A stretch of 64,000 nt of DNA from Cellulomonas sp. URHD0024 (GTDB lineage: Bacteria; Actinomycetota; Actinomycetes; Actinomycetales; Cellulomonadaceae), in assembly GCF_000426185.1 (NCBI RefSeq), contig NZ_AUEW01000001.1, forward strand, positions 868,001 through 932,000, in the 5' to 3' direction. The translations under genes were made by a program, and so were the position numbers. Below, piece after piece: positions 53,835 through 60,654 of this stretch (position 1 is its first letter; every line of letters starts with the position of its first letter). The notes beneath the pieces were generated by a model, which made no database searches, had not been told where the DNA came from, and was given only the letters and a program-made list of their open reading frames with translations.

Positions 53835-54110
53835 GGCCTCACCTTGGCACCGGCTGCGCATGCTCGCCACGCGTAGGACCGACGAGACCGACGCTCGGTG
53901 CGGGTCGTCGCAGGCGGGTGCACCGCAGCGCGCTGACCGCGTCCGTCTCTTGCCGCGGCGTGGCACGGCGAGGAGGTCGGGCTCGCCGCGCACGACCTCG
54001 TGCAGGACCCGGACGAGGCCAGCGGCTGGCCGGTCGGTCCAACGCGCGCCGGCGAGTTGCCGGACCTACGCTTCTTGTCCTTGCACAACCGATCAGACCG
54101 GGGGAAGACG

Positions 54111-54356
54111 ATGACCAGCAACGACGCTTCCGTTCCCGAGGTCCCGGACCACCGTGTGCCTGCCGGGGTCGCCGACGAGGTGACCGACGCAGAGAAGATC
54201 CGCGCGGACGGTCTCGGCGATGCCGGACTCGACCCCGTCGACGACACGACCGACGCAGAGAAGATCCGCGCGGACGGTCTCGACGACGAGGGACTCGACG
54301 CCGTCGACGACACGACGGAGGCCGAGAAGATCCGTTCCGACCGACTCGAGCTCTGA
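54111..54356 (+). CDS. Small acidic protein with three 22-residue repeats
   Basis: 81 residues from ATG 54111, with a GGGGAAG ribosome site. After a ~24-residue Pro/Val-containing start, three repeats follow. Units 1 and 2 are 66 bases each (54183-54248, 54249-54314), with the theme TDAEKIRADGL, GLD, VDDT. The third is partial (TEAEKIRSDRLEL, 54315-54356). Strongly acidic, no hydrophobic core, no Cys, so probably disordered or a simple helical binder. Family not recognised. It is divergent from DUF1206 and convergent with the GntR gene (18 bases). Confidence 0.7.
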   Translation: MTSNDASVPEVPDHRVPAGVADEVTDAEKIRADGLGDAGLDPVDDTTDAEKIRADGLDDEGLDAVDDTTEAEKIRSDRLEL

Positions 54357-54374: not shown

Positions 54375-55073
54375 CTACTCCTCGTCGAGCGGCAGGAGCT
54401 GCATAGCCTCCTCGACACCGAGCAGGTGGCTGGCCATGCGGATGCGGGCCGCTTCGGCGTTCCCGGCCTCGAGCGCCCGCCAGATGGCGTCGTGCTCGTG
54501 CCAGGTCCGCTCCTCGGCGCCCTCCTCGTGCAGCCCCCGCCAGAGCCGCGTGCGCGCCGTGCGGCTCGCGAGCGACTCGACGAAGGCCGCGAGCACCGGG
54601 TTCCCCGAGTTCTCGGCGACGATGCGGTGGAACTCGATGTCCGTCGCGATGAACGCCTCGTGGTCCACGGGCGTGCGACCGAGGATCTCGCGCACCTCGT
54701 CGAGCACCTCGCGGGCACGCGCGAGCGCCTCCGGCGTGATGCGCGTCGCGGCCAACCCGGCGGACTCGGTCTCCAGGAGGCGTCGCACGGCGTGGAACGG
54801 CTGGGCCGAGCCGTCCGCGTGCAGGTCGACGAAGAATCCCATCGACGAGAGCAGGCGGGACGGGTCCAGGCTGGTCACGTACGTGCCGTCGCCCTGACGC
54901 GTCTCGAGGATGCCGAGGGTCACGAGGGCGCGGACGCCCTCCCGCAGCGGGCCGCGGGAGACGCCGAGCTCGTCGGCCAGGTCCTTCTCGACGGGGAGCC
55001 GCGCCCCGGCCTGGAGACGGCCGTCGAGGATCATCGCCTTGATGGCCTCGACGACCTCGTCCGTGCGTGACAT
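54375..55073 (-). CDS. GntR-family regulator (FadR/FCD group)
   Basis: 232 residues. Winged helix at the N-terminus: VVEAIKAMILDGRLQAGARL, PVEKDLADELGVSRGPLREG, LGILETRQGDGTYVT. The FCD effector domain follows with metal-binding residues in DIEFHRIVAENSGNP and HEHDAIWRALEAGN. FCD regulators usually sense organic acids or sugar acids. The gene is 64 bases downstream of ppdK on the same strand; whether it controls that gene is unknown. Confidence 0.9.
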   Translation of the reverse strand: MSRTDEVVEAIKAMILDGRLQAGARLPVEKDLADELGVSRGPLREGVRALVTLGILETRQGDGTYVTSLDPSRLLSSMGFFVDLHADGSAQPFHAVRRLLETESAGLAATRITPEALARAREVLDEVREILGRTPVDHEAFIATDIEFHRIVAENSGNPVLAAFVESLASRTARTRLWRGLHEEGAEERTWHEHDAIWRALEAGNAEAARIRMASHLLGVEEAMQLLPLDEE

Positions 55074-55137: not shown

Positions 55138-57813
55138 TCAGCCCGCGACCGATGCCCGGCCGGCCTCCAGCCGGGCGATCGGGACCCTGAACGGCGAGCA
55201 CGACACGTAGTCGAGCCCGACGTCGTGGAAGAACCGGATCGACTCGGGATCCCCGCCGTGCTCCCCGCACACCCCGAGGTGCAGGTCCGGCTTGGTGGCC
55301 CGCCCGCCGTCGACGCCGGCCTGCACGAGCTGGCCGACGCCGTCCGCGTCGAGAGTCTCGAACGGGGAGATGGTGAGCACGCCGTTCTGCAGGTAGGCGG
55401 CGAAGAACGCGCGCTCGACGTCGTCGCGGGAGAACCCCCACGTCGTCTGGGTCAGGTCGTTGGTGCCGAACGAGAAGAAGTCCGCCTCCTCCGCGATGCG
55501 GTGTGCGGTCAACGCGGCCCGAGGGAGCTCGATCATGCAGCCGATGGGGACGTCGAGCGGGACGCCGGACGCCTCAGAGACGTCCGCGAGCACCCGTTCC
55601 GCCTCCTCGCGGACCAGCTGGAGCTCACGGACCGAGCCGACGAGCGGCACCATGATCTCGGGCCGGGGGTCCTGTCCGGCGTTCTTGAGGAGGACGGTGG
55701 CCTCCGCGACCGCCCGGACCTGGAGCGCAAAGAGGCCGGGCAGGGTCAGCCCCAGCCGGACGCCCCTCAGCCCGAGCATCGGGTTCTGCTCGTGCATGCG
55801 CCGCACGGCGGCGAGCACCTCGACGTCGTGGGCGTCTCCCTCCCCCGTCGCGACCCGCACGGCCAGCTCGGTCACGTCCGGGAGGAACTCGTGCAGCGGC
55901 GGGTCGATGAGCCGGATCGTCGTCGGCAACCCGTCCATCGCGTCGAGCAGGCCGACGAAGTCCTCACGCTGCAGCGGGAGCAGCTCGGCCAGGGCCGCGT
56001 GGGCCTCGTCGGCGTCCGCGAGGACGAGCCGCTCGATGTACTGCCGGCGCTCGCCGAGGAACTGGTGCTCGGTCCGGCACAGCCCGATCCCCTGCGCGCC
56101 ACGGTCGCGAGCGCGCCGGGCGTCCTGCGCGGTGTCCGCGTTCGCCCGGACCTGCATCCTTCGCACCGAGTCGGCGTGCCGCAGGACCCGGTCGACGGCG
56201 GTCACCACGTGCTTCGCCTCGTCGTCGCGCGCGGCGGCCAGTCCGGCATCCAGCCCGTCGGAGACGTAGACCATGACCGGTGAGTCGACCACGGGGACGG
56301 CACCGAGGAACACCTCGCCGGTGGACCCGTCGACCGCGATCGTGTCGCCTGCGTGCAGCACCACGTCGCCGACGCGGACCTCGCCGAGACGGAGGTCGAC
56401 GTCGAGCTCCTCGGCACCGACGACCGCACACGTCCCCATGCCGCGCGCGACGACCGCCGCGTGCGACGTCTTGCCGCCGCGGGCGGTCAGGATCCCGTCG
56501 GCGGCGATCATCCCCTGCAGGTCGTCCGGGTTGGTCTCCTTGCGCACGAGGATGACGCGCACGCCCTGCGAGGAGCGCGCCAGCGCCTGGGCGTTGTCCA
56601 GGACGATCTCTCCGACAGCCGCACCCGGCGAGGCCGGCATCCCGGTGGTGAGCCGCCGACGGGCGGCCGATCCGTCGAACTGCGGGAACAGCAGCTGGCT
56701 GAGCTGGTCGCCGGTGCACCGCGTGATGGCCTCGTCCATCGTGATCAGGGACTCGTCGACGAGCTCGGTCGCGATCCGGAACGCCGCCGCAGCAGTCCTC
56801 TTGCCGACGCGCGTCTGCAGCAGCCAGAGCGTGCCGCGCTCGATCGTGAACTCGATGTCGCACAGGTCCCGGTAGTGCGTCTCCAGACGCCGCATCGCCT
56901 GGCGCAGCGACTCGTACGACGTCGGGTCGAGCAGCTCGAGCTCCGCCAGCGGCAGGGTGTTCCGGATGCCCGCCACCACGTCCTCGCCCTGCGCGTTGGG
57001 CAGGTAGTCGCCGTACACCCCCGACGCCCCGGTCGCGGGGTCACGGGTGAAGCAGACGCCCGTCCCGGACGTCTCGCCCAGGTTCCCGAACACCATGCTC
57101 ACCACGTTCACCGCCGTGCCCAGGTCGTGGGAGATGCGCTCGCGACGCCGGTAGAGCCGGGCACGGTCCGTGTTCCACGAGCCGAGGACCGCCTCGATCG
57201 CCATGTCGAGCTGCTCGCGGGGGTGCTGCGGGAACTCCCGGCCCGTCCGCTCGAGGACGATCTCCTTGAACGTGTGCACGAGGATCCGCAGGTCCTGCGC
57301 ACACAGGTCGACGTCCGTGGCAGCACCGACCGTGCGCTTGCGCTCGTCGAGCGCCTCCTCGAACACGTCGCCGGCGACACCGAGCACGGTCTTTCCGAAC
57401 ATCTGGATCAGCCGGCGGTACGAGTCCCACGCGAAGCGCTCGTCGCCGGAGAACTCTGCGAGTCCCTTCACGGACGCATCGTTCAGCCCGATGTTCAGGA
57501 CGGTGTCCATCATCCCGGGCATCGAGAACTTGGCGCCCGACCGCACCGAGACGAGCAGTGGCTCGTGGAAGTCCCCGAGCCGGCGCCCGAGCGTGTCCTC
57601 GATCTCGCGCACCGCGAGCGTCACCTCGACGCGCAGCTCGGGCGGTACGTGACCGTCACGCAGGTACGCCCGGCACGCCTCGGTCGTGATCGTGAAGCCC
57701 GGCGGTACGGGCAGGTCGAGGTTCGTCATCTCGGCGAGGTTGGCGCCCTTGCCGCCGAGCAGGTCCAGCTGGTCCTTGTCGCCGTCGCAGAACCTGGACA
57801 CGTACCTGGCCAT
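55138..57813 (-). CDS. ppdK: Pyruvate, phosphate dikinase
   Basis: 891 residues from ATG 57813. The N-terminal ATP-grasp domain shows DLLGGKGANLAEMTNLDLPV, GFTITTEACRAYL and FTRDPATGASGVYGDYLPNAQG. The swivelling phosphohistidine domain has GILTARGGKTSHAAVVARGM (Thr regulatory, His catalytic). The C-terminal PEP barrel has IGLCRTEHQFLG, NPMLGLRGVRLG and LGVCGEHGGDPESI with SFGTNDLTQTTWGFSRDD. It interconverts pyruvate and PEP, feeding gluconeogenesis or reversing glycolysis. Downstream of a ramB-type regulator, with a matching inverted repeat at 57905-57924. Confidence 0.97.
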   Translation of the reverse strand: MARYVSRFCDGDKDQLDLLGGKGANLAEMTNLDLPVPPGFTITTEACRAYLRDGHVPPELRVEVTLAVREIEDTLGRRLGDFHEPLLVSVRSGAKFSMPGMMDTVLNIGLNDASVKGLAEFSGDERFAWDSYRRLIQMFGKTVLGVAGDVFEEALDERKRTVGAATDVDLCAQDLRILVHTFKEIVLERTGREFPQHPREQLDMAIEAVLGSWNTDRARLYRRRERISHDLGTAVNVVSMVFGNLGETSGTGVCFTRDPATGASGVYGDYLPNAQGEDVVAGIRNTLPLAELELLDPTSYESLRQAMRRLETHYRDLCDIEFTIERGTLWLLQTRVGKRTAAAAFRIATELVDESLITMDEAITRCTGDQLSQLLFPQFDGSAARRRLTTGMPASPGAAVGEIVLDNAQALARSSQGVRVILVRKETNPDDLQGMIAADGILTARGGKTSHAAVVARGMGTCAVVGAEELDVDLRLGEVRVGDVVLHAGDTIAVDGSTGEVFLGAVPVVDSPVMVYVSDGLDAGLAAARDDEAKHVVTAVDRVLRHADSVRRMQVRANADTAQDARRARDRGAQGIGLCRTEHQFLGERRQYIERLVLADADEAHAALAELLPLQREDFVGLLDAMDGLPTTIRLIDPPLHEFLPDVTELAVRVATGEGDAHDVEVLAAVRRMHEQNPMLGLRGVRLGLTLPGLFALQVRAVAEATVLLKNAGQDPRPEIMVPLVGSVRELQLVREEAERVLADVSEASGVPLDVPIGCMIELPRAALTAHRIAEEADFFSFGTNDLTQTTWGFSRDDVERAFFAAYLQNGVLTISPFETLDADGVGQLVQAGVDGGRATKPDLHLGVCGEHGGDPESIRFFHDVGLDYVSCSPFRVPIARLEAGRASVAG

Positions 57814-57904
57814 CGCGAGCTCCTGTCGTCAGGGGCTGCGGGGTGGTGCAGCCGTTCCTCCAGACTTCAGGGCGTGTGCCGACGACCGCGACACCCGGAT
57901 GCCC

Positions 57905-57924
57905 GCAAGAACGGCGAATCTTGC
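57905..57924 (-). promoter_or_regulatory. Inverted-repeat site upstream of ppdK
   Basis: gcaagaacggcgaatcttgc: 6-bp arms gcaaga/tcttgc separated by eight bases. It lies in the 119-base gap between the ramB-type gene and ppdK. Identical at 17 of 20 positions to the site upstream of the regulator (59421-59440), which suggests a shared regulator, most simply the RamB-type protein. Confidence 0.7.
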
Positions 57925-57932
57925 GCCTGGCG

Positions 57933-59405
57933 TCAGGATTGCTCGGAATCCGCAGGCTGCGGCGCGTGCCTGTCCAGGAAGCCGTACACCTCGCGCGAGT
58001 CCACCCCGGGGAACGCACCGGTGGGCAGCGCCGTGAAGACGTGCTGGTGGACGCGCGCACTCGGCCACGACGCGTCCTGCCAGCGCGCGGTCGCCGACGC
58101 CCTGGGCCGACGGCAGCACGCCTCGTCCGGGCAGGTGGACTGGTGGCGGGTGGGCGTGTCCCGCCCGCGGAACCAGGACGCCGACGCGAACGGCACCCCG
58201 ATGGCGATCGCCAGCTGCCCCTCGGTCCCGGAGCCCGTCTGCGTCGAGCACCAGAACGTGCCGGCCGGGGTGTCGGTGTACTGGTAGGACTCCGACGAGC
58301 GGTCGCGTCGGGCCAGCGCGCGGCGCACCCCCCAGCTCCGGCACACGAGCTGGCCCTCGATCGCGCCCGTCACGTCGGTCGGCAGCGGCAGTCGGTCGTT
58401 CGCATAGGCGCGGTAGATCGCGCCGTCGCCGCCGATCCGCAGGAAGTGCACCGGGATCCCGAGGTGGTGCGTCGCGAGGCAGGTGAAGCGCTGGGCGGCC
58501 GCCTCGTGCGTCACACCGAACGCGTCACGCAGGTCCTCGATCGCCAGGTCCTTCTCGCGCTTCGCCTGCTGGAGGTGCTCGACGGCAGCCTTCTCGGGCA
58601 TCAGGGCGGCCGACGCGAAGTACGTGATCTCCATGCGCTGCCGCAGGAAGTCGGCGTACGAGGTCGGACGTTCGTGCCCGAGCACGCGGTGGGCGATCGC
58701 CTGCAGCGCCAGCGACCGCAGCCCGTGCCCGCCCGGGATCGATGCCGGCGGCAGGTAGATCCGCCCGTGCGCGAGGTCGGTCACCGTGCGCGTCGAGCTG
58801 GGCAGGTCGTCGACGTGCAGGATGGTGAACCCCAGCTGCTCGGCCATCCGGGAGACCGCCCGGTGGGTCAGCGCTCCCCCGGTGTACCCGGCCGCACGGG
58901 CCAGCTGCTCGGCGACCTTCTCGATCTCGGGGAGGTAGCTGTCCCGAGCCTGGCGCTCGAGGCGGATCTGCGTGTTCGCGCGTCGGGCCTCCTCCGGCGT
59001 CGCGATGGCCTCGAGGTCGCGCCGGGCGAGCTCGGAGTGCAGGCCGACCAGCTGCTCCAGCACAGGCAGGGGCAGCGTCCTGCCGGGGCGCACGGTCGGC
59101 AGCGCGAGCCGCTCGAACCCCGCCGACCGCTGGGCTCTGTCGAGTGCGATCTCCAGCCCCGCCCGGCGCGACGGCGGCTCGGCGTCGAGCAGGTCCGCGA
59201 CGCTGACGTCCAGGGCGTCGGCGAGGCTGCGCAGGAGCATGAGCCGCGGCTCCCGACGACCGTTCTCGACGAGCGAGAGCAGGCTCGGCGTGACCCCGAC
59301 CTGTCGGCCGAGAGCGTCCAGCGTCAGACCCCGCGACGTGCGCAGGTGCCGGACCCGTCGACCGATCGTGAGCGCATCGGGCTCCCGCGGACCGTCCATC
59401 GACAT
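57933..59405 (-). CDS. ramB: RamB-type short-chain fatty acid metabolism regulator
   Basis: 490 residues. The N-terminal XRE domain is TIGRRVRHLRTSRGLTLDAL, GRQVGVTPSLLSLVENGRRE. The middle has an IrrE/ImmA-like zinc-peptidase-type domain with GGHGLRSLALQAIAHRVLGHE, whose usual HExxH appears as HRVLGHE. A long C-terminal DUF2083 domain follows with a Cys-rich part (CPDEACCRRP). RamB controls acetate, propionate and glyoxylate-pathway genes in Corynebacterium and mycobacteria. Here its own promoter and that of ppdK share an inverted repeat, supporting control of the PEP-pyruvate node. Confidence 0.9.
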   Translation of the reverse strand: MSMDGPREPDALTIGRRVRHLRTSRGLTLDALGRQVGVTPSLLSLVENGRREPRLMLLRSLADALDVSVADLLDAEPPSRRAGLEIALDRAQRSAGFERLALPTVRPGRTLPLPVLEQLVGLHSELARRDLEAIATPEEARRANTQIRLERQARDSYLPEIEKVAEQLARAAGYTGGALTHRAVSRMAEQLGFTILHVDDLPSSTRTVTDLAHGRIYLPPASIPGGHGLRSLALQAIAHRVLGHERPTSYADFLRQRMEITYFASAALMPEKAAVEHLQQAKREKDLAIEDLRDAFGVTHEAAAQRFTCLATHHLGIPVHFLRIGGDGAIYRAYANDRLPLPTDVTGAIEGQLVCRSWGVRRALARRDRSSESYQYTDTPAGTFWCSTQTGSGTEGQLAIAIGVPFASASWFRGRDTPTRHQSTCPDEACCRRPRASATARWQDASWPSARVHQHVFTALPTGAFPGVDSREVYGFLDRHAPQPADSEQS

Positions 59406-59420
59406 GTTCGTGACCCCTCG

Positions 59421-59440
59421 TCAAGATCGGCGAGTCTTGC
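59421..59440 (-). promoter_or_regulatory. Inverted-repeat site upstream of ramB
   Basis: tcaagatcggcgagtcttgc, arms caaga/tcttg, 16 bases upstream of the ramB ATG; the same 20-bp pattern as 57905-57924 with three differences. Likely autoregulatory site. Confidence 0.7.
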
Positions 59441-59710: not shown

Positions 59711-60235
59711 ATGTCCCTGCTTTCCGCACCCTCTGCCCGTTCTGCCCTCCCTGCCGGTCCTCGTCGCCCCGCGCTGGACGTCCACCAGCTCAGCGCGCTC
59801 ACCCGCTCGATCGCCGCACGTCCGGAGCTCTGGCAGCCTCTGGTCCGTTTCCAGGAGAGCGGTCGCTGGTGGACCCGGCTCGACGCACCCGCCGGCGTCG
59901 ACGTCTGGCTGATCACCTGGCTCCCGGCGCAGGGCACCGAGCTCCACGACCACGGCGACTCGTCGGCGGCGTTCACGATCGCCGGCGGCACCGTCACGGA
60001 GATCCGGCCCGCGGTGGACGGGCGGCTCGTGCCGCAGGAGCTCACGGCGGGCCGGACGCAGACGGTGGAACCGCACGACCTGCACGACGTGCTCAACGCC
60101 GGCACGGAGCCGGCCGTCACCATCCACGCGTACTCGGTCCCGCTGACCCGGATGACCTACTGGAGCCGCACCGACGACGGCGTGCTGGTCCCGGCGCGCA
60201 CCGTCGTGACGGACGAACCGGAGTCGAACGCATGA
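59711..60235 (+). CDS. Cysteine dioxygenase
   Basis: 174 residues. Cupin iron ligands are seen in GTELHDHGDSSAAFTIAGG (two His) and VEPHDLHDVLNAG (third His), with IHAYSVPLTRMTYW near the end. It oxidises L-cysteine to cysteine sulfinate. The length fits bacterial type I enzymes. The stop overlaps the rhodanese start (ATGA), a pairing frequent in actinobacteria. Preceded by a candidate Cys leader peptide. Confidence 0.9.
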   Translation: MSLLSAPSARSALPAGPRRPALDVHQLSALTRSIAARPELWQPLVRFQESGRWWTRLDAPAGVDVWLITWLPAQGTELHDHGDSSAAFTIAGGTVTEIRPAVDGRLVPQELTAGRTQTVEPHDLHDVLNAGTEPAVTIHAYSVPLTRMTYWSRTDDGVLVPARTVVTDEPESNA

Positions 60236-60654
60236 GCGCGCGACGCCGGACGATCGACGACGTCCTCGCGGAGGCCCGCGCGGGCCTGCACCGACTCACC
60301 CCACGGCAGACCTGGGACGCGCTCGCCGACGGAGCACTGCTCGTCGACATCCGTCCAGCAGCGCAGCGGGCCGCCGAGGGCGAGGTGCCGCAGTCCGTCG
60401 TGATCGAGCGCAACGTTCTCGAGTGGCGCCTCGATCCGTCCAGCGCGCACCGCATACCGGCCGCGACGGGCTACGACCTGCAGATCGTCGTGCTCTGCTC
60501 CGAGGGGTACACCTCCAGCCTGGCTGCGGCCTCGCTGGCGGACCTCGGCCTGCACCGGGCCACGGACGTCATCGGCGGGTACCACGCCTGGGCCGCGGCC
60601 GGCCTGCCGGTGTCGTCGGCAGCCCGGCCTGCCCTCGCAGGCGCCGCCCACTAG
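60232..60654 (+). CDS. Rhodanese-like sulfurtransferase
   Basis: 140 residues from ATG 60232. Single rhodanese domain: ALLVDIRPAAQRAAEGEVPQ, and the active loop VVLCSEGYTSSLAAASLADL with the catalytic Cys in CSEGYTS. Ends IGGYHAWAAAGLPV. It probably handles persulfide or sulfite produced downstream of cysteine oxidation. Co-translated with cysteine dioxygenase. Confidence 0.92.
   Translation: MSARRRTIDDVLAEARAGLHRLTPRQTWDALADGALLVDIRPAAQRAAEGEVPQSVVIERNVLEWRLDPSSAHRIPAATGYDLQIVVLCSEGYTSSLAAASLADLGLHRATDVIGGYHAWAAAGLPVSSAARPALAGAAH

What the first reader, a model, noticed from the sequence alone, without database searches (positions are those of the whole stretch)
57905..59440. Matching inverted repeats control ramB and ppdK
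GCAAGA-N8-TCTTGC-type sites at 57905-57924 and 59421-59440 agree at 17 of 20 positions and each precedes one of the two genes. This differs from the corynebacterial RamB box as I recall it and could define the site for this lineage.
Basis: partly seen in the sequence, partly recalled or inferred. Interest (0 to 1): 0.6.

Follow-up and report, generated by a model that had tools for sequence, protein, structure and literature searches.

The report
Shared operator of a gluconeogenesis regulator
Two matching DNA sites next to a regulator gene and an enzyme gene are almost certainly the switches through which that regulator controls itself and the enzyme making phosphoenolpyruvate; related bacteria carry the same switch, usually on a different enzyme for the same job, and no description of it was found.

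Summary
GCAAGAACGGCGAATCTTGC (57905-57924) and TCAAGATCGGCGAGTCTTGC (59421-59440) agree at 17/20 and are the only two CAAGA-N8-TCTTG matches in the 4.47-Mb genome. A weight matrix from orthologous promoters scores them 21.1 and 22.4 bits; the window's next best is 7.0. The regulator is not RamB (46 bits against a cut-off of 700; no RamB box found at either site). It belongs to an unnamed PrpR-fold family. In 78 of 80 relatives it is divergent from pckG (PEP carboxykinase, GTP) with this operator between them. A sister clade is divergent from ppdK and has the operator at unlinked pckG genes. One relative puts the operator on ppsA and, weaker, on a GAPDH gene. The window genome has no PEPCK; its pckG-type regulator now sits upstream of ppdK. 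Promoter geometry is strikingly constant: a leaderless-type TANNNT -10 touches the operator on the regulator side (89/95 loci), and an xANNNT -10 lies 46 bp from its centre on the enzyme side (59/87; also all 12 other targets examined). This suggests self-repression and enzyme activation. Binding and effector are untested. Verdict: a real, apparently undescribed regulon; a new variant of a known regulator kind.

The parts
57905..57924 (.). Operator 1 (ppdK operator), GCAAGAACGGCGAATCTTGC
   Evidence: Exact inverted repeat; 21.1 bits with the orthologue PWM, 18.7 with a PWM from non-Cellulomonas loci only; same position relative to the start codon as the operator of nine ppdK orthologues
59421..59440 (.). 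Operator 2 (regulator's own operator), TCAAGATCGGCGAGTCTTGC
   Evidence: 22.4 bits / 17.3 bits; aligns with the operator in the pckG-regulator intergenic region of relatives
57933..59405 (-). Regulator, 490 aa: Cro/C1-type HTH plus IrrE-like and PrpR-like sensor region
   Evidence: Pfam HTH_31/HTH_3, weak Peptidase_M78, AlphaFold2 model with PrpR as best Foldseek hit; 100/100 support inside the pckG-linked clade
55138..57813 (-). ppdK, pyruvate phosphate dikinase, 891 aa
   Evidence: TIGR01828 1225 bits, cut-off 843; 86-88% identical to the ppdK that is divergent from the sister regulator in nine genomes, 68-84% to other ppdK of the genus
57862..57867 (-). Predicted ppdK -10 element AAGTCT, 47 bp from the operator centre
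   Evidence: xANNNT at offset 46 in 59 and at 47 in 18 of 87 relatives, mean 3.2 per offset; inferred, not mapped
59413..59418 (-). Position of the regulator's -10 (AGGGGT), degenerate here
   Evidence: TANNNT at this place in 89 of 95 loci, start codon 6-7 nt later in 87; the window is one of six exceptions

Best explanation
The two repeats are operators of the regulator encoded between them. The regulator is a PrpR-fold protein of an undescribed Actinomycetales subfamily whose job is to control enzymes that make phosphoenolpyruvate. Bound at site 2 it overlaps its own leaderless promoter and represses itself; bound at site 1, centred about 60 bp upstream of the predicted ppdK start point, it most likely activates ppdK. 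The subfamily normally controls pckG; in this lineage pckG and the ppdK-linked sister regulator are gone and the former pckG regulator sits upstream of ppdK, which carries the same operator. Shown by sequence: the sites, their uniqueness, conservation, constant geometry, and gene presence/absence. Inferred: binding, direction of regulation, an acyl-CoA-type effector, and the order of evolutionary events.
For: Only two exact sites in 4.47 Mb. PWM from 95 regulator promoters: 22.4 and 21.1 bits, next 7.0; without Cellulomonas 17.3 and 18.7, next 4.5. pckG divergent from the regulator in 78 of 80 loci and in 48 of 82 regulator-bearing genomes across the order. Regulator and PEPCK agree in presence or absence in 79 of 82 genus genomes; the only one with regulator but no PEPCK is the window genome; no ATP-type PEPCK either. 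Sister clade divergent from ppdK with operator; its unlinked pckG genes carry sites of 17.8-25.3 bits in 8 of 8 genomes; two genomes with pckG but no regulator have none, nor do nine other ppdK loci without a linked regulator. ppsA and GAPDH sites in L226. Geometry. Fold.
Against: No binding or expression data. Activation is inferred only from promoter geometry. The window's own regulator -10 is degenerate (AGGGGT). In the PWM, site 1 scores slightly better in the regulator orientation than in the enzyme orientation (21.1 against 17.4). Some genomes with only the third-clade regulator also have a good site at pckG (L218 25.3, L221 22.2 bits) while others do not (L216 10.1, L217 none), so site and regulator clade do not match perfectly.
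Confidence: 0.86

Rival explanations
1. Same regulator and operators, but it represses ppdK as well as itself; an effector releases both.
For: RamB of C. glutamicum mostly represses its targets (PMC4448153). The ppdK transcription start is not mapped.
Against: The enzyme -10 sits 46-47 bp from the operator centre in very different genera and enzymes, so the operator lies upstream of -35 rather than over the promoter, and the -10 is usually xANNNT rather than TANNNT.
Confidence: 0.2
2. The sites belong to a true RamB regulon (acetate metabolism) of this lineage.
For: The protein is a distant relative of RamB; more distant homologues are divergent from aceA-aceB.
Against: 46 bits against a cut-off of 700; no RamB box at the sites; no exact third site in the genome; orthologues are pckG-linked.
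Confidence: 0.04
3. RNA hairpins (terminator or attenuator) or chance repeats rather than protein-binding sites.
For: Inverted repeats, one of them just behind a stop codon.
Against: The arms do not pair in the predicted RNA fold of the 96-nt stretch around site 1; conservation of arms and of spacing to -10 elements across families.
Confidence: 0.02

Closest known systems
PrpR of Mycobacterium tuberculosis (ScfR/IsaR family; PDB 6CYJ, 6CZ6, 6D2S; PMC6765138)
   Same: Best structural match (Foldseek E 1e-13, TM by target 0.66-0.78); same order of HTH, IrrE-like and GAF-like regions; the GAF-domain cysteine Cys363 aligns with Cys355 here; divergent from its target and, by its site, likely autoregulated.
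   Different: About 19-20% identity; C-terminal C-X4-C-C in all members instead of C-X2-C-X4-C; operator CAAGA-N8-TCTTG instead of TTTGCAAA; targets are PEP-forming enzymes rather than the methylcitrate cycle.
RamB of Corynebacterium glutamicum (NCBIfam NF038139; PMC4448153)
   Same: XRE-type HTH, same superfamily, carbon-metabolism targets, autoregulation.
   Different: 46 bits against a 700-bit cut-off; binding site given as AA/GAACTTTGCAAA in PMC4448153, absent here at the sites.
RamB of Paracoccus denitrificans (class 2 ScfR; PMC10370305)
   Same: ScfR-type regulator next to the genes it activates; ligand class CoA thioesters.
   Different: Two boxes separated by 18 bp and glyoxylate-cycle targets.
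Homologues beside aceA-aceB in Actinomycetales (L229, L239, L236)
   Same: Same family (47-54% identity by tblastn), divergent from their target.
   Different: Isocitrate lyase and malate synthase neighbours. By identity they resemble the third clade of the tree, which is separate with 100/100 support, but these three loci were not in that tree; third-clade promoters have more GAAGA-like half-sites.

Membership tests
RamB equivalog (NCBIfam NF038139) | Score above the curated cut-off of 700 bits | tested here: not met
   46.4 bits, residues 14-330 only; all 24 members of A1 match it but only weakly, best E 2.3e-15
RamB equivalog (NCBIfam NF038139) | RamB-type binding site AA/GAACTTTGCAAA (or the PrpR TTTGCAAA) at target promoters | tested here: not met
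   No match at or near 57905-57924 or 59421-59440 with up to 3 mismatches; no TTTGCAAA with up to 1 mismatch in the window
RamB equivalog (NCBIfam NF038139) | Linked to acetate/glyoxylate genes | tested here: not met
   Orthologues divergent from pckG in 78 of 80 loci; the aceA-linked homologues examined are only 47-54% identical
ScfR family (PF09856) | ScfRs C-terminal domain | tested here: inconclusive
   4 of 24 members match, best E 0.035, not the window protein
PrpR / IsaR fold group | PrpR-like three-dimensional fold behind an XRE HTH | tested here: met
   Model pLDDT 80.8; Foldseek best hits 6CZ6/6CYJ/6D2S; profile search E 5e-10
PrpR / IsaR fold group | C-X2-C-X4-C motif for the [4Fe4S] cluster | tested here: not met
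   Invariant C425, C430, C431 as C-X4-C-C; the first cysteine of the motif is absent in all members shown; Cys355, equivalent to Cys363, is kept
PrpR / IsaR fold group | Binds CoA thioesters and regulates transcription accordingly | not testable with these tools
   Needs purified protein

The most novel reading that the evidence does not exclude
A conserved Actinomycetales regulator follows the metabolic function rather than the enzyme: one operator and one fixed promoter geometry are attached to whichever enzyme makes phosphoenolpyruvate (pckG, ppdK or ppsA, and in one genome a GAPDH gene), so lineages have exchanged the gluconeogenic entry enzyme while keeping the switch. The window genome is a case in which the pckG regulator was taken over by ppdK after loss of pckG.
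Probability: 0.6. Interest if true: 0.7.

Novelty: new variant of a known kind. Interest (0 to 1): 0.6.

Why it matters
Control of the step that makes PEP decides between sugar breakdown and sugar synthesis. If right, this gives a transcription factor, its operator and a predicted promoter logic for pckG/ppdK/ppsA in many Actinomycetales (Cellulomonas, Oerskovia, Isoptericola, Microbacterium, Leifsonia). No description was found in the literature searched. It also offers a clean natural example of enzyme replacement under a retained regulator, testable with two short DNA probes.

Tried and rejected
RamB identity (score, box and gene context fail). RNA hairpin: arms do not pair in the predicted fold. 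Wider regulon in the own genome: only two exact sites; 2-3-mismatch hits are fewer than in the reversed control. A pckG remnant between the regulator and cdo: none found by tblastn. Recent duplication of site 2 giving site 1: by eye no similarity beyond the site, so left open; the shared centre CGGCGA also fits the family consensus. Viral contigs searched with one relative of the regulator: no match. My simple gene calls in relatives were rough, so neighbours were confirmed with tblastn or HMMs. Literature searches for PckR, PPDK in Cellulomonas and ScfR with PEP found nothing on this regulator, within an open-access library only.

Full report
OBSERVATION. The two sites exist as described: GCAAGAACGGCGAATCTTGC at 57905-57924 and TCAAGATCGGCGAGTCTTGC at 59421-59440, 17 of 20 identical. 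Pattern CAAGA-N8-TCTTG has exactly two matches in the 4,467,545-base genome, both here; the reversed control has none. Composition predicts about 0.6. Across 82 genomes of the genus it has 14 matches in nine genomes: two here, six between a regulator of this family and ppdK or pckG (G025, G028, G040, G042, G075, G081), and six in two other genomes, G052 and G053.

GENES. The gene between the sites encodes a 490-aa protein with a Cro/C1-type helix-turn-helix. It is not RamB by the NCBIfam model (46.4 against 700 bits). ppdK (891 aa) is a clear pyruvate phosphate dikinase (1225 bits). Both genes are on the minus strand, regulator first. The regulator has no close paralogue in its genome.

RELATIVES. 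Eighty related loci were fetched. pckG, the GTP-dependent PEP carboxykinase, lies divergently within 600 bp upstream of the regulator in 78 of 80. The intergenic region holds the repeat, full consensus about GTSAAGAWTCGCSGAWTCTTSAC. In random 290-bp pieces of the same loci none of 2,876 had 0 or 1 arm mismatches; about half of the regulator promoters did. A weight matrix from 95 regulator promoters gives site 2 22.4 bits and site 1, which was not in the training set, 21.1; the third best place in 64 kb has 7.0. A matrix from non-Cellulomonas loci alone gives 17.3 and 18.7, next 4.5.

GENE EXCHANGE. In 82 genus genomes regulator and PEPCK occur together in 51, neither in 28, PEPCK alone in two, and regulator alone in one: the window genome (Fisher P 2e-18, ignoring shared ancestry; the regulator count includes third-clade copies). 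It lacks ATP-type PEPCK as well. It has a malic-enzyme-type domain, so malate to pyruvate to PEP through ppdK is plausible (inference). A sister clade of the regulator (64-68% identity) is divergent from ppdK in nine genomes, and that ppdK is the one 86-88% identical to the window's. The tree puts the window regulator inside the pckG-linked clade with 100/100 support and the ppdK-linked regulators in their own clade with 100/99. Genome G006 holds both systems a few kb apart: regulator B and ppdK, rhodanese and cdo, pckG and regulator A. The window has cdo-rhodanese, regulator A and ppdK but neither pckG nor regulator B. The simplest reading is loss of pckG and regulator B and relocation so that regulator A serves ppdK; the order of events is inferred.

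INDEPENDENT TESTS OF THE OPERATOR. In eight genomes of the ppdK-linked type, a pckG gene lies elsewhere without a regulator gene beside it; all eight have a site of 17.8-25.3 bits upstream. Two genomes with pckG and no regulator have no site, nor do nine ppdK loci without a linked regulator. Of the genomes that have only the third-clade regulator, some have a good site at pckG (L218, L221) and others do not (L216, L217); this is unexplained. In L226, from another family without PEPCK, a relative (58.6%) is divergent from ppsA (PEP synthase, 1156 bits) with a 17.6-bit site between them, and a tandem downstream GAPDH gene has a 12.0-bit site, the same layout as regulator-site-ppdK here.

GEOMETRY AND MECHANISM. 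On the regulator side TANNNT begins 12.5 bp from the operator centre in 89 of 95 loci and the start codon follows 6-7 nt later in 87, the layout of a leaderless actinobacterial promoter, so the operator covers the -35 region. On the enzyme side xANNNT lies at offset 46 in 59 of 87 loci (mean per offset 3.2). The same offset 46 appears in all ten unlinked pckG sites checked, in ppsA and in the GAPDH gene, none of which was used to find it. The window's site 1 has AAGTCT at offset 47, as in the ppdK orthologues. The operator centre is thus about 25 bp upstream of the regulator's predicted start and about 60 bp upstream of the enzyme's: occlusion on one side, a typical activator position on the other. 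Direction of regulation is inference.

THE PROTEIN. The model (pLDDT 80.8) matches M. tuberculosis PrpR best, a CoA-thioester-binding [4Fe4S] regulator (PMC6765138). Cys355 aligns with its cluster ligand Cys363, but the C-terminal motif is C-X4-C-C instead of C-X2-C-X4-C in every member shown. It works like a PrpR-type regulator; it fails one defining feature of the IsaR group as published and is not filed as a member. Homologues divergent from isocitrate lyase and malate synthase A (identity 47-54% by tblastn; L229, L239, L236) resemble the third clade of the tree, though they were not in it; that would be the branch that corresponds in function to RamB.

VERDICT. A real operator pair of a regulator-plus-PEP-enzyme system not described in the literature searched; new variant of a known kind.

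Noticed in passing
L226:2051-7771: A relative of the regulator sits between divergent ppsA and a tandem GAPDH gene (PRK08289 type); both promoters carry the operator with -10 at offset 46, in a genome without PEPCK.
   Followed up: partly
window 59711-60654: Cysteine dioxygenase-like gene overlapping a rhodanese gene, divergent from the regulator; the same pair lies between ppdK and pckG in L158.
   Followed up: partly
window 54375-55073: GntR/FCD-family regulator gene 64 bp downstream of ppdK on the same strand, possibly co-transcribed.
   Followed up: no
window 54000-54356: Small ORF whose product contains three copies of a DAEKIRADGL-like repeat.
   Followed up: no
L218 2236, L221 2365: Genomes with only the third-clade regulator still have 22-25 bit sites upstream of pckG, which may mean the third clade binds a similar operator.
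   Followed up: no
L158, L159, L161-L167: Second ppdK subfamily (86-88% to the window) with its own divergent regulator, distinct from the 72-74% ppdK found in most genomes of the genus.
   Followed up: yes
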